Shown piece by piece: positions 35,436 through 44,854 of a stretch of 44,854 bases of DNA (positions are counted from its first letter, which is position 1; each line of letters begins with the position of its first letter). Both the position numbers and the translations under genes were made by a program. The notes beneath the pieces were generated by a model. The model worked only from the letters and a program-made list of their open reading frames with translations, searched no databases and was not told the DNA's origin. The stretch comes from Bradymonadales bacterium (GTDB lineage: Bacteria; Bdellovibrionota; UBA2394). The DNA is taken from the NCBI GenBank assembly GCA_007693605.1, contig REDG01000022.1, positions 1-44,854 on the forward strand, in the 5' to 3' direction.

Positions 35436-36806
35436 TCAAAGAAGCTCCTTTGCTTGCAGCTTTTCGCTTAGAGAGGATTGGCCTGAAGACTCGCTAAGAT
35501 ATCGATCAAATTCTTCCGGAAACTTCTCGATATAACTCAGAACGGGCATTGCAATGGAATCGGCTAAAACGCAGATGGTTCGTCCGATCATATTGTTAGA
35601 GGTTGTCTTTAAAAGCTCAAGATCTATCGGTCGAGCCTGTTTCTCTGTAAAGCTGTGAAGGATCTTCATCAGCCAACCCGTTCCCTCGCGGCAGGGGGTG
35701 CACTGACCGCAAGACTCATCGTGATAGAACTCAGACAAGTTCTTCAGTACCTGAACCAAATCTCTTGTTTCGTCCAAGATGATCATTCCTCCAGAACCCA
35801 ACATGCTTCCCTTCGAGGCAATCGATTCATAGTCGAGGGTCATGTCCATCGCTTCGGCCGCCGTCAGAATTGGAGCTGAAGAACCCCCAGGAATGACGGC
35901 CTTCAACTTGCGGCCGTCTTTCATTCCCCTGCAACAGTCTTCCAGCAGAGTTTGAAAGCTGGCCCCACATTCCACCTCGAAAACGCCTTGGCGAACTACA
36001 TCACCGCTGACGGACCACAACTTAGTTCCCGTACTTTTTTCCGTACCAATTCCGGAGTAGGCCTTGTCACCATTGTTGATAATCCAAGGCACCGCGGCCA
36101 GAGTTTCAACATTGTTGACCACGGTAGGGCATTTCAGATAGCCCTCAACGGCTGGAAAGGGGGGCTTCAATTTTGGCCAACCTTTCTTTCCTTCAAGCGA
36201 AGAGATGAGACCGGTTTCTTCACCGCAGATGTAAGCCCCCGCGCCTCGGTGAACAAACATATCATGATCGAAGCCGGAGCCCAGAATGTTCTTGCCGAGG
36301 TAGCCTGCTCGATAAGCTTCTTTAATCGCTTCTTCGACAATCTTGGTCGCATAGGTGTACTCCCCTCGAATATAGACATAAGACTTTTTGGCCTGGACGG
36401 CGTAAGCACCAATAATCATTCCCTCAATCATCATATGGGGGAGGTGTTCCAAGATCACACGATCCTTAAAAGTGCCTGGTTCAGACTCATCGGCATTGCA
36501 AAGAAGGTAGTGGGGTTTGCTCTGATCTTTGGGAACGAAGTTCCACTTCAAGCCTGTCGGAAAGCCGGCACCTCCTCGGCCTCGAATGCCGGAACCCTTC
36601 ACGGCTTCAATCACTTGATCAGGGCTGAGCTTCTTCTCCAGAATTTTTTTGAGAGCATTGTAGCCACCCTTTGATTCATAGACAGAGATTCTCCGAATCC
36701 CTTGAACGCCCAAATGCTCAAGCAAGATTCTCTTTTCTCCTGGGGCTGGACTAAGATCGACTGCCATGGGCCGCATATTTCGGTGATGTTGAGTTTCTCT
36801 CATCAT
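35436..36806 (-). CDS. nuoF: NADH-quinone oxidoreductase subunit F (NuoF)
   Basis: NuoF is the NADH-oxidising flavoprotein subunit. It binds NADH/FMN through IRGRGGAGFPTGLKW, and GAGAYICGEETGLISSLEG. It ligates cluster N3 through SCGQCTPCREGTGW plus a later Cys (RTICVLAD). The frame can be extended upstream into nuoE, but the ATG at 36806 overlaps the nuoE stop as ATGA. That gives 456 residues and is the better start. Confidence 0.96.
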   Translation of the reverse strand: MMRETQHHRNMRPMAVDLSPAPGEKRILLEHLGVQGIRRISVYESKGGYNALKKILEKKLSPDQVIEAVKGSGIRGRGGAGFPTGLKWNFVPKDQSKPHYLLCNADESEPGTFKDRVILEHLPHMMIEGMIIGAYAVQAKKSYVYIRGEYTYATKIVEEAIKEAYRAGYLGKNILGSGFDHDMFVHRGAGAYICGEETGLISSLEGKKGWPKLKPPFPAVEGYLKCPTVVNNVETLAAVPWIINNGDKAYSGIGTEKSTGTKLWSVSGDVVRQGVFEVECGASFQTLLEDCCRGMKDGRKLKAVIPGGSSAPILTAAEAMDMTLDYESIASKGSMLGSGGMIILDETRDLVQVLKNLSEFYHDESCGQCTPCREGTGWLMKILHSFTEKQARPIDLELLKTTSNNMIGRTICVLADSIAMPVLSYIEKFPEEFDRYLSESSGQSSLSEKLQAKELL

Positions 36807-37345
36807 GGCGTTTGAGGCTCTCCTTCTTTGCACGAGTTGATTAAGCGATTCAATTTTTCAGGGTTCAGATTTTCGTAGTAGGCTTCGTTCACTTGTACGA
36901 TGGGAGCTGACCCGCAACTTCCCAAGCACTCCACTTTCGCTACACTAAATTTTCCGTCTGGAGTGACTTCTCCTGGCTTGATGCCAAGCCGAGAGCATGT
37001 GTTCTTATAGAGTTGATGAGACCCCGCCATCCAGCAACTTAAGGTCATGCAAAACTGTAAATGGTGCTGACCCACAGGGTGTCGGTGATACATATGGTAG
37101 AAAGAAACAACCTCTGTTACTTGAGCAGGGCTCAAGTCCATCAACTCAGCGACATATTCAACGACGGAGTCTGAGAGGCTGCCGAACTCATCTTGTGCCA
37201 AATGAAGTACAGGAAGTAGCGCAGACCTTTTAGAATCGTAACGAGTCAGAAGCTCATCGAATTTCTTTTTTGCCTCATTCGAAAACTTGGGTGTTTCTCG
37301 GTCTGGTTTTTGTTCTGGTACTGCCGAATTTGCCATCGTCTCCAC
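36803..37345 (-). CDS. nuoE: NADH-quinone oxidoreductase subunit E (NuoE)
   Basis: The 24-kDa-type subunit carrying [2Fe-2S] cluster N1a. The four ligands are in CMTLSC and ECLGSCG, the normal thioredoxin-like arrangement. The helical N-terminal part (LLPVLHLAQDEFGSL) is typical. The length is 180 residues. The start may be GTG 37345, with AAGGAG just upstream, or the in-frame ATG at 37336. The gene lies between nuoCD and nuoF in the usual order. Confidence 0.95.
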   Translation of the reverse strand: METMANSAVPEQKPDRETPKFSNEAKKKFDELLTRYDSKRSALLPVLHLAQDEFGSLSDSVVEYVAELMDLSPAQVTEVVSFYHMYHRHPVGQHHLQFCMTLSCWMAGSHQLYKNTCSRLGIKPGEVTPDGKFSVAKVECLGSCGSAPIVQVNEAYYENLNPEKLNRLINSCKEGEPQTP

Positions 37346-37364
37346 TTTCTCCTTACCTAAACTC

Positions 37365-39062
37365 CTATCGATCTAGTTCGCCCGCAATCACATTCATCTG
37401 CCCCAGAGTGGCCACAGCGTCTGCAATCAAGCCCCCTTGAACGACTTCTTCAAAAGATTGGTAGATCGGAAAACAAGGGGGGCGGACCTTGAGTCGGTAG
37501 GGCCGTCCACTTCCGTCTGACACCAAATAAAAACCGAGCTCACCGTTGGCGGCCTCGGTGTAAGAGTAGACATCTCCCACTGGAGGCTTGATCCCGTCGA
37601 TGATTAACATAAAGTGGTTCATGAGGGCTTCAATATTGGAGTAAACTTCATGCTTTGGAGGCAGAACAATCTTAGGGTTGTCAATAGACACAGGCCCTCC
37701 GGGAAGCTTGTCTAGGGCTTGTTCAATAATCCGACAACTCTGTCTCATCTCTTCAATTCGAATCAAGTATCGAGAGAAGTTGTCTCCGTCAGTTAAGCAG
37801 GGGATATCGAACTCAAACTCATTGTAATGATAGTAGGGCTCCAGCTTTCTCAAATCCATGTCGACACCAGAGGCACGCAAACATGGGCCGGTGAACCCAT
37901 AGTCAATGGCCATATCTTTGGGAATGACACCGGTGTCTCTCATTCGTTTGAGCCAGATCTTGTTGTTGGTGAGCAAGCCGTCTACTTCGTCGATTGTTTC
38001 TCTTAGAGCTTTCACTCGTATTCTGGCGTCTGCGATCCAATCATCTGACAGATCACCGGCTAGTCCTCCGACCCGAGTGATCGAGGTGAGCATTCTATTT
38101 CCGCAAAGCTTTTCAAAGAGTGTGTAGACATCCTCACGCGCCCGAAAGCAAAACCAAAAAGTGGAGAGCGCCCCCATGTCGACAGATGTCGTGCCAATAC
38201 ATACCAAGTGATCAATAATTCTAGAAAACTCATTCAAAATGACTCGGATGAACTGAGCTCGATCTGGAATTTCGACTCCAAGCAGCTTTTCAACGCTCCT
38301 ACAATACCCGTCATTGTTCATCGGGGCAGAACAGTAATTCAGTCGATCGGTGTAAGGGATGACCAGATTGTAGGTGTGAGTTTCTGCCATCTTCTCAAAA
38401 CAGCGATGAAGGTAGCCGATTTCAGCGATTGCCCTTGTGATGGTCTCTCCTTCAATTTCAACGAACCATCTGAAGGTGCCGTGCGTTGCAGGGTGCGAGG
38501 GCCCCAGGTTGAGAGTCATTCTTTGATCTGTTAAAACATCTTCATCTTCATCAACGGGAAGCGGATCGAATTCAAAGTCGATAGGCTTGCTCAATACTTG
38601 GTTGCCGGTAGCCGGATAATCCTTGCGAAGCGGATGACCTTTAAACTCGTGATGACAAAGAATTCTCGTCAAATTCGGATGCCCATCAAAGTCGATTCCA
38701 ATCATATCGAAGGCTTCTCGTTCAAACCAATTGGCAGCTCGGTAGACCTTGGTCAGAGACGGAATCTTTTCTCCCTCTGAGTGGGGGACTTTCACTCGGA
38801 TTCGCTTGTTTTGCTCTCGGTTAAAAAAATGATAGACGGCCTCAAGCGGCTTCTCTCGCTCGGGGTAGTGCACTCCGGCAATGTCCATCAGCCAATGAAA
38901 TCTGCGCTCATTCTTTAAGAACCCGGCAAGTTTTTCTACGGCCTGGGGCTTGATCGTGATGACGAGTTCATTCGAGTTAGTGGAGCTCTCTTGTATCGAA
39001 TCGACTTGGTCGTTCGGAAGAAGCTTCTTCACTTGTTGATCAATTTGATAAAGGTACTCCAC
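37365..39062 (-). CDS. nuoCD: Fused NADH-quinone oxidoreductase subunits C and D (NuoCD)
   Basis: A 565-residue fusion of the 30-kDa and 49-kDa subunits near the quinone site. The NuoC part covers residues about 1-160 and has YPEREKPLEAVYHF, and WFEREAFDMIGIDFDGHPN followed by HHEFKGHPLRKDYP. The NuoD part starts near residue 178 with MTLNLGPSHPATHG, the quinone-site segment. It contains GYLHRCFEKMAE and ends in the family-typical ATLGQMNVIAGELDR. Fused C-D genes occur in several proteobacterial and other lineages. The start is GTG at 39062, with AGGAG nine bases upstream. Confidence 0.96.
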   Translation of the reverse strand: MEYLYQIDQQVKKLLPNDQVDSIQESSTNSNELVITIKPQAVEKLAGFLKNERRFHWLMDIAGVHYPEREKPLEAVYHFFNREQNKRIRVKVPHSEGEKIPSLTKVYRAANWFEREAFDMIGIDFDGHPNLTRILCHHEFKGHPLRKDYPATGNQVLSKPIDFEFDPLPVDEDEDVLTDQRMTLNLGPSHPATHGTFRWFVEIEGETITRAIAEIGYLHRCFEKMAETHTYNLVIPYTDRLNYCSAPMNNDGYCRSVEKLLGVEIPDRAQFIRVILNEFSRIIDHLVCIGTTSVDMGALSTFWFCFRAREDVYTLFEKLCGNRMLTSITRVGGLAGDLSDDWIADARIRVKALRETIDEVDGLLTNNKIWLKRMRDTGVIPKDMAIDYGFTGPCLRASGVDMDLRKLEPYYHYNEFEFDIPCLTDGDNFSRYLIRIEEMRQSCRIIEQALDKLPGGPVSIDNPKIVLPPKHEVYSNIEALMNHFMLIIDGIKPPVGDVYSYTEAANGELGFYLVSDGSGRPYRLKVRPPCFPIYQSFEEVVQGGLIADAVATLGQMNVIAGELDR

Positions 39063-39088
39063 TTCGTGAATCTCCTAACTTTTCCTTC

Positions 39089-39652
39089 TTACTTTGAGCC
39101 CGGGTTGAGCGCCTGGTCGTAGGTTTCTGCTTCAGCATTACTCTTTGCGGCGATTTGCCGGCGATTTTGAATTCGATCTCTAGGGCTTTGGCCTTTCATG
39201 ATTTTTTCCTGAAGCTTGATGATCGCGCCAATGACCGACTCTGGGGTGGGAGGGCAGCCGGGCACATAAACATCCACGGGGATAATCGACTGAATGCCCT
39301 GAACGGTGTGGTAGGCTCGGTAAAAGCCTCCAGAGGAGGCGCATACGCCCATGCTTACGACCCATTTGGGGTCTGGCATCTGTTCGTAGACCCGACGAAG
39401 AACCGGGGCCATTTTTTCGGTGATTGTGCCCGCCACAATCAGTAAGTCACTTTGTCTTGGAGAGAATCGTACGACTTCGGCGCCAAAGCGAGAGACATCG
39501 TAGTGAGATCCTACGACGGCCATATACTCGATTCCGCAACAAGCCGTCCCGAAGGGGAGGGGCCAAAGGGAGTGCTTCCGACTCCAATTAACAAAGTCTT
39601 GAATCCGCGTCGTAAAGACGGGGATTTGGTCGAGAGGGGTCAATGTCTTCAT
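39089..39652 (-). CDS. nuoB: NADH-quinone oxidoreductase subunit B (NuoB)
   Basis: NuoB binds cluster N2, the last electron carrier before quinone. The ligands are visible in the tandem cysteines of [10 protein letters not shown], in [10 protein letters not shown] and in [13 protein letters not shown]. The length of 187 residues is normal. AAGGAG lies six bases before the ATG at 39652. It is the first gene of the nuo unit; no nuoA-like frame is present upstream. Confidence 0.96.
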
Positions 39653-40012
39653 GAAGCGCTCCTTCTTCGAATTTTAGGAGTAAATCGAGCCCAGCCGTCT
39701 GGTCCGAAAATCAGGTTGCCTCCAAATGGGGCCTGAACACCTGAGTTTAAGGTAACATAAACTGAAGAATCGGAAAAAGCTCCTAAACGCTCATTTATCT
39801 TAGTGAAAGCCGTAAACTTGGGCAACTTTCGACATCTTCAATTTACGGGCTTAGAAGCCCCTTCGATGGGTCCGAAGCCCAAACCCACCAAGCCAGAAAG
39901 CGAATCTTTTTGCTGCCCCCGCCCAAAGACAATTTAAGTTGATTCTCAAGCTCTCTCGACTTATTGCTGATATCGGCATCTCTTTTCCAGGCCATTCGAC
40001 CCCCAATCGCAT
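39653..40012. other. Intergenic region between nuoB and tRNA-His
   Basis: About 360 bp with no credible gene. The left part is the leader of the minus-strand nuo operon and contains the candidate promoter described separately. Around 39848 a short GGGCTT-AG-AAGCCC hairpin is visible. I see no clear promoter for the tRNA in the right part. Confidence 0.5.
39797..39825 (-). promoter_or_regulatory. Candidate sigma-70-type promoter of the nuo operon
   Basis: Reading the minus strand, TTGCCC (39825-39820) and TAAGAT (39802-39797) are separated by 17 bases. Each matches four of six consensus positions. Transcription from here would give a leader of roughly 140 bases before nuoB. Confidence 0.35.
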
Positions 40013-40089
40013 GGTGTCTGTAGCTCAGTTGGTAGAGCCCCGGATTGTGATTCCGGTCGTCGTGGGTTCGAGTCCCATCAGACACCCCA
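40013..40089 (+). tRNA. tRNA-His (anticodon GTG)
   Basis: The full cloverleaf is visible. The extra 5' G (40013) pairs with the discriminator C (40086), as expected for tRNA-His. The acceptor strands GTGTCTG and CAGACAC pair over seven bases. The D arm is GCTCAGTTGGTAGAGC, the anticodon loop is TTGTGAT, the T loop is TTCGAGT, and CCA is encoded at 40087-40089. Its 3' end is the left edge of the accessory island. Confidence 0.97.
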
Positions 40090-40094
40090 TCTTG
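40076..40094 (+). repeat. Attachment-site-like repeat, copy at the tRNA-His 3' end
   Basis: CATCAGACACCCCATCTTG covers the end of the tRNA and five following bases. The same 19 bases occur at 44793-44811 and, with one T missing, at 41745-41762. This is the pattern left when an element integrates into a tRNA 3' end and restores it. Confidence 0.7.
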
Positions 40095-40142
40095 CGTCCT
40101 CTTTTTCCGCCCAGCTTCGTTGCTCTCCTCACTGCGCTGCTC
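40083..40142 (+). repeat. Repeat unit copy A, left part (interrupted by the IS element)
   Basis: These 60 bases are identical to 44610-44669 in copy B. They include TTTTTCCGCCCAGC (40102-40115), the left arm of an inverted repeat whose right arm is beyond the IS insertion. The sequence begins within the tRNA-His 3' end. Confidence 0.9.
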
Positions 40143-40144
40143 AT

Positions 40145-40158
40145 ATGGATGACCAACC
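40145..40158 (+). repeat. IS subterminal inverted repeat, left
   Basis: ATGGATGACCAACC is the exact reverse complement of 41602-41615. The related TTGGATGACCTCC also occurs at the transposase start (about 41515-41527), so a third imperfect copy sits inside the element. Confidence 0.88.
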
Positions 40159-40396
40159 GGCAAGTTAGAATATTGAATATTTTCAAACATATGATGGTCT
40201 CTTGGACTTTACAACCTCATATTCGCGTGCTGGTTAACGCATTAAGTTTTGTCCGTACGAAAGGCTTATCCACAATCTCGCGTCAGATGCTTTGTTTCTA
40301 AGCAGCGCCCGTGGGCTACCTTTCATTCCACTTCATCACTGTTTATTCAATAGTCTCCTCGTCCTTTTTTGATCGTTTGATCAAAGTTTCAAATTC
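40159..40396 (-). ncRNA. Predicted location of the IS1111-type guide (bridge/seek) RNA
   Basis: This 238-bp stretch lies downstream of the transposase and has no coding frame on the element strand. In the IS1111 group the programmable guide RNA is encoded at this end. Two hairpins are visible in the minus sense: TTTGATC-AAAC-GATCAAA right after the transposase stop, and one around GCCCACGGGC. The latter adjoins GCGCTGCT (complement of 40301-40308), which equals the target flank at 40134-40141 next to the insertion point. Exact RNA ends cannot be set from sequence. Confidence 0.5.
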
Positions 40397-41515
40397 TTAA
40401 GCGGCAGCCCTCAGAGACTCCCAAACAAAACCCAGCAGCTCCCGAGCACAAGCCACTTTCACCTTATTGACGGGCTTGCCCGCATACAAAAGCCTGGAGG
40501 ACTTCTTGTGCAGCCGTTTCATACAACGATCCGCAATTTCAACAAGTTTTGGATCCACCCCCTTTCTCTTCTCCTTCAATCTCACACTCAGCTGAGGGAT
40601 TCGAGAGGCCATCTGACAGGCTTCCACTGCACTCGTCCTGATTCGATAATTTCCCATTTTGCTGAGCTGATACCGTCGATGCCGACCCCCGGAGCTATAT
40701 TCTCGCAAATCCAAGCCCGCATAAGAGGTCAACCGACGAGGGTGATCAAACCTCTGGATGTCCCCAAGCTCTGTGATCAAGGTCATCGAGGTCAGGGTGT
40801 CGATCCCCCGATAGCAATTCAAAGCCGCCACTTTTTTTCTATAGAGCGGAGCTTCCGCAATCCTCAAGATCTCTTCATCATAAACGGCCACAGAACTCTC
40901 CATCTGATGGAGCTGACTCAGAAGAATCTTAAGGTTAAACTCAAGGGCCCTTTCCGTGAGCCTCCCGAGTTCGGCCTCTAGCCAATTCAGATGAGACTTT
41001 GTCCAATACGCCGCTTTCTTCGAGCCTCTCGACTCGCGATAATCCAGCTTATGACGCCGACATAAAGCCAAAATATGCCGCTTTAGATCATTTACCTGCT
41101 CCTTCTGAAACTTTCGAGAGCGAATCAAATCTCGAATACTCTCTTCTTTCTCATCAGGGATATGAACAATACTTAACAAGCCCTTCTGGTAATACTCGGC
41201 TAGCTCCCGACAGTCGACCTTGTCCGTCTTCACCGCCTTGCCCACTCGTCGAGGAATCGAAGAGGGGGCCACCACTTCGCACAATACCCCCTTAAGAGCC
41301 AAAGCCCTCTGAAGACTAAAGCCAAGATAGGTCGCCTCGTAACACAGCTTTACGGGCTGACCCAGATCCATAAAAACCTTTAGCTTCTTTAGTAAAGCCC
41401 CCACGCTCGGCTTACACCTGAATTCTACCCGCTTTTCAGGCCGCCCCTCAATGATCCCACAACCGTGAAACGCTTCATCATCGACATCAATTCCTACATA
41501 TGTTACCAACTCCAT
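40397..41515 (-). CDS. IS110-family transposase (DEDD recombinase)
   Basis: The 372-residue product has the N-terminal RuvC-like DEDD domain: GIDVDDEAF with D10, LCYEATYLG with the Glu near 60, and KTDKVDCRELAEYY with the two Asp residues near 97-100. A helical middle follows. The C-terminal Transposase_20 domain has ALNCYRGIDTLTSMTLITEL, TSYAGLDLREYSSGG and QLSKMGNYRIR. AAGGAGG lies about nine bases before the ATG. No frameshift is present, so the enzyme should be active. IS110-family enzymes act with an element-encoded guide RNA and a serine in the C-terminal domain. Confidence 0.96.
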   Translation of the reverse strand: MELVTYVGIDVDDEAFHGCGIIEGRPEKRVEFRCKPSVGALLKKLKVFMDLGQPVKLCYEATYLGFSLQRALALKGVLCEVVAPSSIPRRVGKAVKTDKVDCRELAEYYQKGLLSIVHIPDEKEESIRDLIRSRKFQKEQVNDLKRHILALCRRHKLDYRESRGSKKAAYWTKSHLNWLEAELGRLTERALEFNLKILLSQLHQMESSVAVYDEEILRIAEAPLYRKKVAALNCYRGIDTLTSMTLITELGDIQRFDHPRRLTSYAGLDLREYSSGGRHRRYQLSKMGNYRIRTSAVEACQMASRIPQLSVRLKEKRKGVDPKLVEIADRCMKRLHKKSSRLLYAGKPVNKVKVACARELLGFVWESLRAAA

Positions 41516-41601
41516 TGGATGACCTCCTTCTTCTTGTTTACATCTAGAAAATGATCACTTGATCACTTTATGTGTGAGGTAACCAGCCCTCGATTTAAAG
41601 A

Positions 41602-41615
41602 GGTTGGTCATCCAT
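41602..41615 (-). repeat. IS subterminal inverted repeat, right
   Basis: GGTTGGTCATCCAT is the exact complement of the left repeat and lies five bases inside the right junction with repeat copy A. Confidence 0.88.
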
Positions 41616-41620
41616 TATTT

Positions 41621-41762
41621 CTCGAGTAGTGTTGAACTACACTCCGCTGCTCGTTTCGTCGGCGCCTTGCTGGGCGAAAAAATTGAACGCAATCTGGCGA
41701 GGAGGTGTCTTTCTAGGACTCGAACCCACGAGTGGGGGAGAGGGGCATCAGACACCCCACTT
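41621..41762 (+). repeat. Repeat unit copy A, right part
   Basis: This segment continues copy A after the IS and matches 44667-44811 with only a few differences. It contains the right arm GCTGGGCGAAAAA (from 41669) of the inverted repeat, a tRNA-His-like hairpin, and an attachment-like CATCAGACACCCCACTTG at its end. Confidence 0.88.
41703..41755. other. tRNA-His-like mini-element in repeat copy A
   Basis: GGTGTCT (41703-41709) can pair with AGACACC (41749-41755), the same acceptor strands as tRNA-His, and a CCA follows. Inside, ACTCG-AACCCA-CGAGT (41717-41732) forms a perfect five-pair hairpin. Read on the minus strand, the left half resembles a decayed tRNA-His 3' half (GTGGGTTCGAGTCC then AGACACC). 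Confidence 0.45.
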
Positions 41763-42001
41763 GCTCAGATAAGCGCATTTTCGCCATACTTTCTCAGCCT
41801 CGGTACTCACTCAGTTACGTAGCATCCAAACTACGCGCCTTCGTTCGAACGCATCGGCTTCGTCGTCTGGCTCGCTTCTCTTTGTAGCTGGCGAGAAGGT
41901 GTCTTCAGGGACTCGAACCATTTTTCCTCCATTTTCAAGCCGGAGGGTATTTTCAGTGTCGCTCTAAATGGATTTTTGATAGGGGTGAAAAAGGTGGTTT
42001 T
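41763..42001. other. Non-coding stretch with a third inverted tRNA-3'-like motif
   Basis: No convincing gene is found here. At 41889-41920, GCTGGCGAGAAGGTGTCTTCAG precedes GACTCGAACCA, a shorter relative of the motifs at 41695 and 44741. On the minus strand it reads as a T-arm box GGTTCGAGTCC followed by AGACACC. Downstream, a CCTCC/GGAGG pair and AAGGTGG precede the next gene, the last being its ribosome site. Confidence 0.45.
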
Positions 42002-42664
42002 ATGGGTTTAATCATTCGATCGGTGTTGGTTGGAATCTTTTCTTTGGGGCTTGGATCAGCGAAGGGGAGCGACTGCGCAGCTGTGATTCGTGCAGCAGTA
42101 GTAGACCCCTTTAATGTGACAAGACTTGTGTACTCTAGTCCTGATGCAGTGGGCGAGGCCCTTCGTCGATTTCTACAGTTGGATATGCCTGCTGAGCGGC
42201 GAGAATTGCCACAGGTGCCAGTTGGCTCATTGGCGGAGTTTTTTAGTTTCCATTTGCCTGCCAAGTCTATTGGTGAAATGCATAAGGCGCCTCAAGTTAA
42301 GATTTATGGAGAGATGCTTGCGTGGTTCTGGTTGACTCAGCAGGGCAACATTCCAGATGGGGCGCTGCTGTCATGTCGATCATGTGGGACTTTGCCGGAT
42401 ACCCCTGTATTGGTCGAGATGCGATCCGGCTCTGATGTTGAGAGACTGGAGGCAGGAATGACAATCGCAGGAGTTTCTCGGCCGATCGAAGGAGTTTCGG
42501 AATTTGTTCTCACGATTGAGAGTCGTGATGGCAGATTCAAGGCTCAGTTCGTTGAAGATCTAAGTAGGGGTGGATTTCTGGTAAAAGTCACGACTGTTTC
42601 ACGAGGGCGTTTTCGGAATAGAGTAGAAAGCCATTCATTTCAGGTGGAGTCGCTGGCGCCATAG
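42002..42664 (+). CDS. Secreted protein of unknown function, 220 residues
   Basis: I do not recognise this family. A signal peptide is clear (RSVLVGIFSLGLGSAKG, cleavage expected near SDC). The mature protein has three or four cysteines, including a CRSC pair at about residue 124. Strand-like segments fill its second half (TPVLVEMRSG, SEFVLTIESRD, GGFLVKVTTVS). AAGGTGG lies five bases before the ATG, an unusually good ribosome site. It is the only plus-strand gene of the island's second module and converges on the darTG unit. It may be cargo carried by the element. The DLSRGG sequence recalls PilZ, but the needed RxxxR is not evident and the protein is exported. Confidence 0.7.
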   Translation: MGLIIRSVLVGIFSLGLGSAKGSDCAAVIRAAVVDPFNVTRLVYSSPDAVGEALRRFLQLDMPAERRELPQVPVGSLAEFFSFHLPAKSIGEMHKAPQVKIYGEMLAWFWLTQQGNIPDGALLSCRSCGTLPDTPVLVEMRSGSDVERLEAGMTIAGVSRPIEGVSEFVLTIESRDGRFKAQFVEDLSRGGFLVKVTTVSRGRFRNRVESHSFQVESLAP

Positions 42665-42699
42665 TTGTCTTCTTCTTATGAGTTGGCCGACCGCTAATC

Positions 42700-42864
42700 T
42701 TAGGCGGTAACGTTCTGAACTGTTCTCGCATGCCACCTTCCCTTTTTTGTCTTCGGTGGCACCTTCAACGTGTTGAGAATCTCTGAAATTTTCCAATAGC
42801 TATAGCCCTTCTCGCGAAGCTCCTTCATTTTTTCGATGGTCTCGGCCCGCTTTCGCAATGGAAG
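42700..42864 (-). pseudogene. Fragment of a serine-recombinase C-terminal (Recombinase) domain
   Basis: Directly after the darG stop the same frame stays open for 54 codons to a TAA at 42700. It encodes IEKMKELREKGYSYWKISEI, then LNTLKVPPKTKKGRWHARTV. This matches the usual tail of the large serine recombinase DNA-binding region (LR-x-x-G-x-S/T-y-x-x-I-a-x-x-L-N, then W-x-x-x-x-V). No resolvase catalytic domain is nearby. It could start at TTG 42858 or ATG 42828, but it looks like a remnant. Confidence 0.6.
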
Positions 42865-43392
42865 TCAATGTGCAGGCCGTGCGAGATTAACGGCCTTTGA
42901 TGTGCTGCTGTTGCGAGTTCCCCCAAGCACATACGGGCCGATTTCTTCGGCAGCCCTGGGTAGATAGACAAAGACTTCAAGGTCTGAAATATCTCCCAGG
43001 TGTTTCTCAATCAGAAGCTTTACATCGTGCCACTTTAGGCCACCTAGGCTGCAACCAAGAGCAGGCATTGCAAGTGTGTGAATGCCTAGATCCGTGTAAT
43101 GTTCAGCCAAATACTTAAGGCCAGCTTCAACATCTTCAAGATAAGAAGGTTCTTTCCAATGACGTTTCGTTGGGAAGTTTAAAATCTGAACCTGATCGTC
43201 CTCCCATAGATAAGGAACGCCCGGCTTCACTTCGCCACGTCCGCAGCGCTGTTTATAGTCGTCAAAAAGTGCAGGGTATCGAGCCTTGAACTCAAGAGCG
43301 AGTCCCTTTCCCATCGCCCCCGCACAATTGACAGAGTTGGTGAGAACCTGAGCAGGAGAGTCAAAAATATTTCCTTCCACGTATGTGATCAC
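42865..43392 (-). CDS. darG: DarG-type macrodomain antitoxin (DNA ADP-ribosylglycohydrolase)
   Basis: DarG removes ADP-ribose that the DarT toxin attaches to thymidine in single-stranded DNA. The macrodomain signatures are ITYVEGNIFDSPAQVLTNSV, NCAGAMGKGLALEFKARYP, NFPTKRHWKEPSYLEDVEAG and ALGCSLGGLKW, all close to DarG. The open frame extends to a TTG at 43422. GTG 43392 is the better start: it overlaps the darT stop by four bases (GTGA) and has AGGG upstream. The 175-residue product is essentially the macrodomain alone, without the extra C-terminal DarT-binding domain many DarG proteins have. The frame is intact. Confidence 0.9.
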   Translation of the reverse strand: MITYVEGNIFDSPAQVLTNSVNCAGAMGKGLALEFKARYPALFDDYKQRCGRGEVKPGVPYLWEDDQVQILNFPTKRHWKEPSYLEDVEAGLKYLAEHYTDLGIHTLAMPALGCSLGGLKWHDVKLLIEKHLGDISDLEVFVYLPRAAEEIGPYVLGGTRNSSTSKAVNLARPAH

Positions 43393-44040
43393 TTGTGCCC
43401 TGCCCTTTCTATGAAATACCAACCAGGGTTAATCTTCACTGTCCTATTTATACCAAACCGCTTCAGAACGGCCAAGGTGTTCGCCTGAGCTTCTTTAGAA
43501 TAGCAAATAATATCCAGGATCCAGGAGATGGTCAATTGGCAAAGAATCTGGAACAAGGACTTCAGCCTGTTTCTTACGCTTGAGGTCGAGGTCATGAGCA
43601 TATTTGACGGTCTGGATGGCCTTTGAATCAATGACTGCCAGATCATCTATCGTTTTAAAGACTTTGAATTGAGTATCTATTGAGCGCGCGTTCCCATCAG
43701 AGATGACAACTCCCTGCAGGCTGAGAATGTCCAAGGAAAATCTTAGAAACAGAAGATTGTCGTTCTGATCTTGATTCCGAGCGACCATAGGAGTTTTAAA
43801 GCCAAAATATAGTGGGACGTAATCATGCAGTGGTCGATCTGTTTCTTTGATCCGTATGCCTGCCCTGCCTTTTTGTACGTCCTCATTGGAAAGGTTAAAA
43901 TAAGTACGCCCCCGCATTCGATTGTAAGACTGCAAGTTTCCACATTCAAAAATGCTTTCCAGATTCTGATGGTGAGTCATGTGATGTGCGGGGCCAAGTT
44001 GAAACCGCTCTTTGATTGTCTGGTAGAGGGGCTCTGGCAT
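43389..44040 (-). pseudogene. darT: DarT-type ssDNA-thymidine ADP-ribosyltransferase toxin, frameshifted
   Basis: The first 174 residues match DarT (DUF4433). They include HHMTHHQNLESIFECGNL as the NAD-binding start, YVPLYFGFKTPM, and AEVLVPDSLP with Glu160 as the expected catalytic residue. At 43512-43525 the sequence ATCCAGG is present twice in tandem. This shifts the frame and yields PGYYLLF and a stop at residue 181. Removing one copy restores an uninterrupted 214-residue reading (LLD then IICYSKEAQANT, ending NPGWYFIERAGHK) that stops exactly at the 4-base overlap with darG. The last 40 residues are thus lost in the present gene. Whether the stump keeps activity cannot be told from sequence. 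Confidence 0.88.
43512..43525 (-). repeat. 7-bp tandem duplication breaking darT
   Basis: ATCCAGG at 43512-43518 is repeated at 43519-43525 (CCTGGAT twice on the coding strand). It lies ten codons after the catalytic Glu160 codon and shifts the frame by one base. Confidence 0.9.
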
Positions 44041-44073
44041 TGCCCAAAAATTTGCAAAGATTTTTGGATTTTG

Positions 44074-44481
44074 TCAGGTAATTAATCTCGATGTTAATTT
44101 GAGGGCCTGGCAGCCAAATCCCCCAAAAAACAGTTCTGGCTTGCCATTGGCCCCTTCCCGTCTGCTGCGCTTGAGGATGGAGTGGACGACCTTCCGGTCC
44201 CACTTTTCAAGACCTGTTTTTGTCCTAATATTTTGGCTCGTCAGCCAATCTGCTATTTCTCGATATGTGTTACCGTTGGTACGTAGTCGCCGCATTTCTA
44301 AAATCAATTTTTGCTCAGATCGATGAGGAACGACCTTACCCCTTTCCAGTTTATACCCGAACGCCAATTGGCCAGTGAAGCCTGTTCGTAGCGGCCCCTG
44401 TCTGATCGAGATTCCGAAGAGATCTAAATGCTTCATTACTGACGACCTAGCGCAGCCGATTTCTCTGGCAATTTGGCCCAT
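44074..44481 (-). CDS. Helix-turn-helix protein with recombinase-type C-terminal domain, probably 5'-truncated
   Basis: The 135-residue product begins with a clear helix-turn-helix (MGQIAREIGCARSSVMKHLD) and then resembles the DNA-binding tail of serine recombinases: GQLAFGYKLERGKVVPHRSE, then LRTNGNTYREIADWLTSQNI and W-DRKVVHSILKR. The resolvase catalytic domain is absent. The same frame remains open and protein-like upstream (QPYKDRDFLYREYVKNGKS fits the HTH entry) for at least 43 codons, to where repeat copy B begins at 44610. No ATG, GTG or TTG occurs in that stretch. The gene was therefore probably cut at the repeat junction. It ends 33 bp before darT and may act as its regulator or be a remnant. 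Confidence 0.65.
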   Translation of the reverse strand: MGQIAREIGCARSSVMKHLDLFGISIRQGPLRTGFTGQLAFGYKLERGKVVPHRSEQKLILEMRRLRTNGNTYREIADWLTSQNIRTKTGLEKWDRKVVHSILKRSRREGANGKPELFFGGFGCQALKLTSRLIT

Positions 44482-44609
44482 AGACTTCCCGTTTTTTACG
44501 TATTCGCGGTATAGAAAATCTCTATCTTTGTATGGCTGAGCCTCAAAAAACGGTGTAGTTATAATGAGATCGCTGTGGGGATCGTTAACTAGTTTACTGG
44601 AGCGTCTTG
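44482..44609 (-). other. Coding-like upstream extension of the truncated HTH/recombinase gene
   Basis: This stretch is open in the frame of the gene at 44074-44481 and contains the residues SDLIITTPFFEAQPYKDRDF, but no usual start codon. It ends at the edge of repeat copy B. I see no other gene or clear promoter in it. Confidence 0.5.
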
Positions 44610-44749
44610 CACCCCATCTTGCGTCCTCTTTTTCCGCCCAGCTTCGTTGCTCTCCTCACTGCGCTGCTCGAGTAGTGTTGAACTACACTCCGCTGCTCGT
44701 TTCGTCGGCGCCTTGCTGGGCGCAAAAATTGAACGCAATCTGGCGAGGA

Positions 44750-44803
44750 GGTGTCTTTCTAGGGCTCGAACCCACGAAGTGGGGGAGAGGCTCATCAGAC
44801 ACC
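44750..44803. other. tRNA-His-like mini-element in repeat copy B
   Basis: GGTGTCT (44750-44756) and AGACACC (44797-44803) can pair as in the tRNA-His acceptor and are followed by CCA. The inner hairpin of copy A (ACTCG/CGAGT) is reduced to CTCG with CGA here, by one substitution and one inserted A. Confidence 0.4.
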
Positions 44804-44811
44804 CCATCTTG
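44793..44811 (+). repeat. Attachment-site-like repeat, right copy
   Basis: CATCAGACACCCCATCTTG is identical over 19 bases to the sequence across the tRNA-His 3' end at 40076-40094, in the same orientation. It is the best candidate for the right end (attR) of the island. Confidence 0.7.
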
Positions 44812-44854
44812 ACAGGGTGGTACACCCGTGTAACACTTAACCCATGCCCACTGA

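What the first reader, a model, noticed from the sequence alone, without database searches (positions are those of the whole stretch)
40134..40396. Predicted guide RNA with an 8-base match to the target flank
The 238-bp non-coding 3' end of the IS contains AGCAGCGC at 40301-40308, the complement of GCGCTGCT at 40134-40141 immediately beside the insertion point and including its CT core. It sits next to a GCCC/GGGC hairpin. In IS110/IS1111 elements a guide RNA pairs with target DNA in just this way, and this end is where IS1111-group RNAs are encoded. A rough count suggests an 8-base match by chance is uncommon in so short a region, but not impossible.
Basis: partly seen in the sequence, partly recalled or inferred. 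Interest (0 to 1): 0.7.

Follow-up and report, generated by a model that had tools for sequence, protein, structure and literature searches.

The report
IS1111 element with target-matching guide RNA
A small jumping gene carries, just behind its recombinase gene, the code for a guide RNA whose two short guide stretches match the DNA on the two sides of its insertion site; relatives at other sites carry correspondingly changed guides, so this is a genuine but already described kind of RNA-guided DNA insertion.

Summary
The element is an IS1111-type insertion sequence, window 40142-41622, minus strand. AGCAGCGC (40301-40308) encodes GCGCUGCU in the minus-strand RNA. It matches the flank GCGCTGCT up to and including the core; chance of that 8-mer in the non-coding end is about 0.002.

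The decisive evidence is comparative. Twelve relatives (44-58% identical recombinases where aligned) have the same RNA fold in the same place. The guide segment sits unpaired between a covarying outer stem and a conserved apical stem, and its sequence changes to match each element's own flank. Over 13 elements, 59.9 of 78 variable guide positions match their own flank, against a mean of 27.0 and a maximum of 50.5 in 50,000 flank permutations.

The empty site lies in the window. A deletion derivative elsewhere in the genome sits at the same target, which belongs to a dispersed palindromic repeat. The proposed GCCC/GGGC hairpin is not conserved.

This is a new member of a known kind (seekRNA/bridge RNA, 2024). 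Unexpected by-product: several relatives insert just upstream of Shine-Dalgarno sites.

The parts
40142..41622 (-). Whole IS1111-type insertion sequence (1481 bp): 7-bp left extension AGAAATA, 3-bp right extension ATG, in transposase orientation
   Evidence: Ends fixed by the empty site at 44610-44784, and by the 7/3 extension rule of IS1111 (PMC11187229) shared by relatives
40397..41515 (-). IS110/IS1111 DEDD recombinase, 372 aa
   Evidence: Pfam DEDD_Tnp_IS110 6e-8 and Transposase_20 7e-17; PDB relatives ISCro4 9t56 and IS621 8wt6; SG motif and KTD..D conserved
41602..41615 (-). Left subterminal inverted repeat ATGGATGACCAACC
40145..40158 (-). Right subterminal inverted repeat
40197..40328 (-). 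Guide RNA (bridge RNA/seekRNA) region matched by the covariance model R1
   Evidence: E 2.4e-21 in own genome, single hit; note the window sequence was one of the 13 used to build the model
40301..40308 (-). First target guide GCGCUGCU: 7 guide positions 40302-40308 plus core-facing base 40301
40277..40283 (-). Second target guide ACGCGAG: matches the other flank plus core, as ACTCG-AG (4 of 5) at the window site and GAGCG-AG (3 of 5) at the C71 site
40298..40300 (-). Apical stem 5' strand (UAG), pairing with CUG(A) at 40283-40286
40311..40314 (-). Stem closing the target-binding loop, 5' strand CCAC
   Evidence: Compensatory CCAC/GUGG, CCUC/GAGG, CCUU/AAGG among relatives
40270..40273 (-). 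Stem closing the target-binding loop, 3' strand GUGG
40216..40223 (-). Donor-matching segment AAUAUGAG, 7 nt identical to the circle junction ATATG|AG
   Evidence: Junction match; switches to AAUACGAG in all four relatives whose right end is ATACG
40134..40141 (+). Left target flank GCGCTG plus CT core
41623..41629 (+). Right target flank CGAGTAG (core CT is 41621-41622, counted in the IS)
44661..44675 (+). Uninterrupted target GCGCTGCT|CGAGTAG

Best explanation
The non-coding end downstream of the recombinase gene encodes an IS1111-type seekRNA/bridge RNA on the minus strand. Shown: a conserved two-module fold. In the first module an internal loop carries on its 5' side a guide of 7 nt plus core (GCGCUGCU), and on its 3' side a short guide ending in the core (ACGCGAG). 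These match opposite strands of the target on the two sides of the core. The second module carries AAUAUGAG, which matches the joined right end of the element. Inferred: the DEDD recombinase binds this RNA, the first loop pairs with the target and the second with the circular form of the element, and recombination at the CT/AG dinucleotide inserts the element in one orientation.
For: Guide-target covariation over 13 elements: 59.9 matches against permutation mean 27.0, maximum 50.5, 0 of 50,000; still 0 of 50,000 with only one Shine-Dalgarno-targeting element kept; second guide 27.0 against mean 13.9, maximum 26.5, 0 of 50,000. Register control: 0.756 matching in register, 0.19-0.40 at all other shifts; matching falls from 8/13 at guide position 7 to 1/13 at position 8. 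One guide, several sites: five sites AGG[GT]CGGTTA next to identical right ends in G029, three AGTCTG sites and two AGGAGG sites in G011. Fold: 90.5% of cells paired, 12 of 21 pairs with double changes, 0 of 500 shuffles; slid controls 24-54%. In the home genome a deletion derivative sits at CACTGCGCTGCT|CGCTCC; 2 of 5 perfect-match repeat sites are occupied against 0 of 93 one-mismatch sites, Fisher p = 0.002. Guide order (top-strand complement first) and 7/3-bp extensions are as described for IS1111.
Against: No transcript has been observed. The second guide is imperfect at both home sites (4 of 5 and 3 of 5). Some relatives match weakly (L052 3 of 6). L040 fits the fixed register poorly (2 of 6) and fits well only one position away. 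The C-N-UAG anchor was chosen after the first alignment; with MAFFT columns, as first run, the first-guide test gave 1 of 20,000. The 5' donor guide is only partly consistent. MFE of the window RNA alone pairs part of the guide with AAGCA, while its centroid does not.
Confidence: 0.94

Rival explanations
1. The 8-base match is a coincidence in a non-coding end.
For: Any 8-mer of a 30-bp target, either strand, occurs in 7% of shuffled ends.
Against: The match is core-anchored, lies at the position homologous to the guide in 12 relatives, and covaries with flanks.
Confidence: 0.01
2. The element finds its site by protein recognition of the palindromic repeat fold, and the RNA match was acquired secondarily or is regulatory.
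For: The target lies in a palindromic dispersed repeat, and IS1111 members are known at REP and attC sites.
Against: Relatives with similar recombinases use unrelated sites that match their guides; two very abundant one-mismatch variants of the repeat carry no insertion.
Confidence: 0.03
3. The RNA is a transposase-regulating antisense or attenuator whose loop resembles the target because it came from captured flank DNA.
For: It lies next to the transposase gene.
Against: Two guides matching opposite strands in the fixed IS1111 order, a conserved fold and donor-segment switching are not predicted by this.
Confidence: 0.02

Closest known systems
seekRNA of IS1111-family elements (ISEc11, ISKpn4, ISPa11, ISPst6; Siddiquee et al. 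2024, PMC11187229)
   Same: Downstream non-coding RNA, subterminal inverted repeats, 7/3-bp extensions, guide complementary to the top strand placed 5' of the guide matching the other strand, matches overlapping at the insertion point, natural redirection among relatives; ISPa11 also targets a genomic palindromic repeat
   Different: A different subgroup with a different target; recombinase 372 aa against 330-350 aa; RNA and movement not tested
Bridge RNA of IS110/IS621 (Durrant et al. 2024, PMC11208160)
   Same: Target-binding internal loop with two guides including the core, a donor-matching segment, CT core, guide-target covariation
   Different: RNA lies at the 3' (right) end, not upstream of the recombinase; long subterminal repeats; donor segment in a hairpin with only one side clearly matched

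Membership tests
IS1111 family insertion sequences | DEDD (RuvC-like) plus Transposase_20 recombinase with SG motif | tested here: met
   Pfam hits, SG invariant and KTD..D conserved; the GL-P part of the motif reads GLDL here
IS1111 family insertion sequences | Perfect or near-perfect subterminal inverted repeats, usually 11-13 bp | tested here: met
   14/14 bp
IS1111 family insertion sequences | Extensions of 7 bp left and 3 bp right, insertion without target duplication | tested here: met
   Empty-site comparison; one of the two copies of the shared bases is assigned to the IS by that convention
IS1111 family insertion sequences | Long non-coding region downstream of tnp | tested here: met
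   254 nt, 40143-40396
seekRNA/bridge RNA | Two guides matching opposite strands, overlapping at the core, in IS1111 order | tested here: met
   the second guide is imperfect in the window element
seekRNA/bridge RNA | Guides covary with target in relatives | tested here: met
   0 of 50,000 permutations
seekRNA/bridge RNA | Donor-binding loop matching the element ends | tested here: inconclusive
   3' side matches the junction and switches T/C with the right end in 13 of 13; 5' side only partly consistent
seekRNA/bridge RNA | RNA expressed, bound by the recombinase, required for insertion | not testable with these tools
   Needs RNA-seq, pull-down and transposition assays

The most novel reading that the evidence does not exclude
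Within this RNA-guided IS group, some elements have guides that resemble anti-Shine-Dalgarno sequence (GAUCCUCC, AACUCC, GUUCUCC) and insert directly upstream of the ribosome-binding site of genes. This would give the element many near-universal landing sites and could let it transcribe host genes without destroying their translation signals.
Probability: 0.6. Interest if true: 0.6.

Novelty: new member of a known kind. Interest (0 to 1): 0.4.

Why it matters
It verifies by covariation that a guide RNA can be read off a single IS1111 copy, and it extends natural guide reprogramming to a group of elements in this phylum. Sets of one guide with several natural sites (five in G029, three and two in G011), plus a home genome with about 95 near-match repeat sites, give natural data on guide length (7 nt plus core, sharp edge) and mismatch tolerance. 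The relatives that land just upstream of ribosome-binding sites pose a testable question about target choice.

Tried and rejected
Rfam: nothing but tRNA-His in 36000-44854. Close relatives in viral contigs: none; genome contigs: one locus, 59% identical and apparently the same contig as G352 C46; plasmid records match only below 60% identity, best listed about 35%, too far for RNA alignment. The GCCC/GGGC hairpin was rejected as non-conserved. A first permutation test with MAFFT columns was off by one for most sequences and was replaced by the C-N-UAG anchor. Fold significance of the window RNA alone is weak (z -1.3 and -2.2), so single-sequence folding was not used as evidence.

Full report
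Check of the observation. GCGCTGCT is at 40134-40141 and AGCAGCGC at 40301-40308. The element is delimited by 14-bp perfect inverted repeats (40145-40158, 41602-41615) and by an empty copy of the target at 44610-44784 in the same window; the two flanks overlap by CTC. With the IS1111 rule of a 7-bp left and 3-bp right extension (PMC11187229) the element is 40142-41622, and the target, in transposase orientation, is CACTACTCG|AGCAGCGCAGTG. In shuffled non-coding ends the core-anchored 8-mer occurs with probability 0.0018, and with CGAG following it 0.0003.

The recombinase (40397-41515, minus) is an IS110/IS1111 DEDD enzyme with solved relatives ISCro4 (9t56) and IS621 (8wt6). The phylum search found 37 other genomes with matches, about a dozen of them with long matches at 44-59% identity.

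Relatives. Around them I found the same kind of ends (ATGGATGACC or a similar repeat, extensions beginning AGAA on the left, ATG or ACG on the right) and the same 3' non-coding region. The RNA segment homologous to 40301-40308 differs in each and resembles the reverse complement of that element's right flank. Examples: TTATTAC for flank AGTAATAA, CCACGGTCC for AGCACGGACCGTGG, GATCCTCC for AGGAGGATC, AACTCCT for AGGAGTT, GCAGAC for AGTCTGC. A second segment further 3' matches the left flank plus AG: GGCAAG for GGCA|AG, GCGAAG for GCGA|AG.

Covariation test. With the guide anchored by the following C-N-UAG, 13 elements score 59.9 of 78 for variable positions 2-7; 50,000 permutations of flanks among elements give mean 27.0 and maximum 50.5. 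Keeping only one Shine-Dalgarno-targeting element still gives 0 of 50,000. The second guide scores 27.0 against mean 13.9 and maximum 26.5 (9 elements). Shifting the register drops matching from 0.756 to 0.19-0.40. Position 7 matches in 8 of 13 and position 8 in 1 of 13, so the guide is 7 nt plus the core-facing base. Caveat: the anchor was settled after an earlier test using MAFFT columns, which still gave 1 of 20,000 for the first guide. Permutation does not model relatedness among the elements.

Fold. RNAalifold on 13 sequences gives an outer stem, a CCAC/GUGG stem (CCUC/GAGG and CCUU/AAGG in relatives), an apical UUAG/CUGA stem with the guides unpaired on either side, then a second hairpin. 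Pair counts: 90.5% paired, 12 pairs with double changes, 0 of 500 shuffles. A covariance model finds 19 places in 14 of 369 phylum genomes and exactly one in the home genome; most of the sequences it finds were used to build it. The second hairpin carries AAUAUGAG, seven bases of which equal the circle junction ATATG|AG; in the four elements whose right end reads ATACG the RNA reads AAUACGAG.

Home genome. A deletion derivative on contig C71 keeps both ends and lacks the gene and RNA; it sits at CACTGCGCTGCT|CGCTCC. A right-end remnant on C30 is followed by CT|CGGG. The target belongs to, or resembles, a dispersed palindromic repeat with about 95 near copies of CTGCGCTGCTCG against 4 for the reversed pattern. 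Of perfect-match sites 2 of 5 are occupied, of one-mismatch sites 0 of 93 (Fisher p = 0.002; assembly gaps at repeats could hide insertions).

By-product. In G011, G057 and G022 some elements sit directly 5' of AGGAGG, AGGAGTT or AGGAGAAC, 10-13 nt before the ATG of open frames of 140-413 aa, with guides matching those sequences. A fifth site in G057, AGAGTATATT-ATG before a 365-aa frame, has no readable guide. Elements with similar ends and RNA in G029, and the AGTCTG element of G011, do not target such sites. A literature search for IS1111 with Shine-Dalgarno found nothing to the point by title and abstract.

Verdict. The finding is right: a guide RNA of the seekRNA/bridge RNA kind. It is a new member of a known kind. 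Expression, binding and RNA-dependent movement are inferred.

Noticed in passing
L041 and L043 (G011), L046 and L149 (G057), L057 (G022), right flanks: Relatives of this IS inserted immediately 5' of Shine-Dalgarno-like sequence, 10-13 nt before start codons, with anti-Shine-Dalgarno-like guides where the guide can be read.
   Followed up: partly
Own genome, about 95 sites on many contigs; L109, L113: Dispersed palindromic repeat with units about 122-123 bp apart in tandem and 27-bp inverted ends, containing CTGCGCTTCTCG...CTGCGATGCTCG; often at contig ends.
   Followed up: partly
L060 (G000:C71:22044-22171): Deletion derivative of the IS (about 124 bp) joining the right end to the start region of the gene at a shared TGGATGACC; presumably movable only in trans.
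   Followed up: partly
L130 (G024:C81:4359-4487): A guide RNA between IS-like ends without a recombinase gene, apparently a small non-autonomous element carrying only its RNA.
   Followed up: no
window 42865-44481: Macro-domain gene next to a DarT gene (a DarTG-like pair) and a Recombinase-domain fragment, between repeats downstream of tRNA-His (40083-40142/41621-41738 and 44610-44784).
   Followed up: partly
window 44803-44854 and G000:C54: The window's right end overlaps one end of contig C54, and the other end of C54 stops exactly at the IS junction sequence GAGCAGCGC, so a further copy of target or IS may lie there.
   Followed up: no
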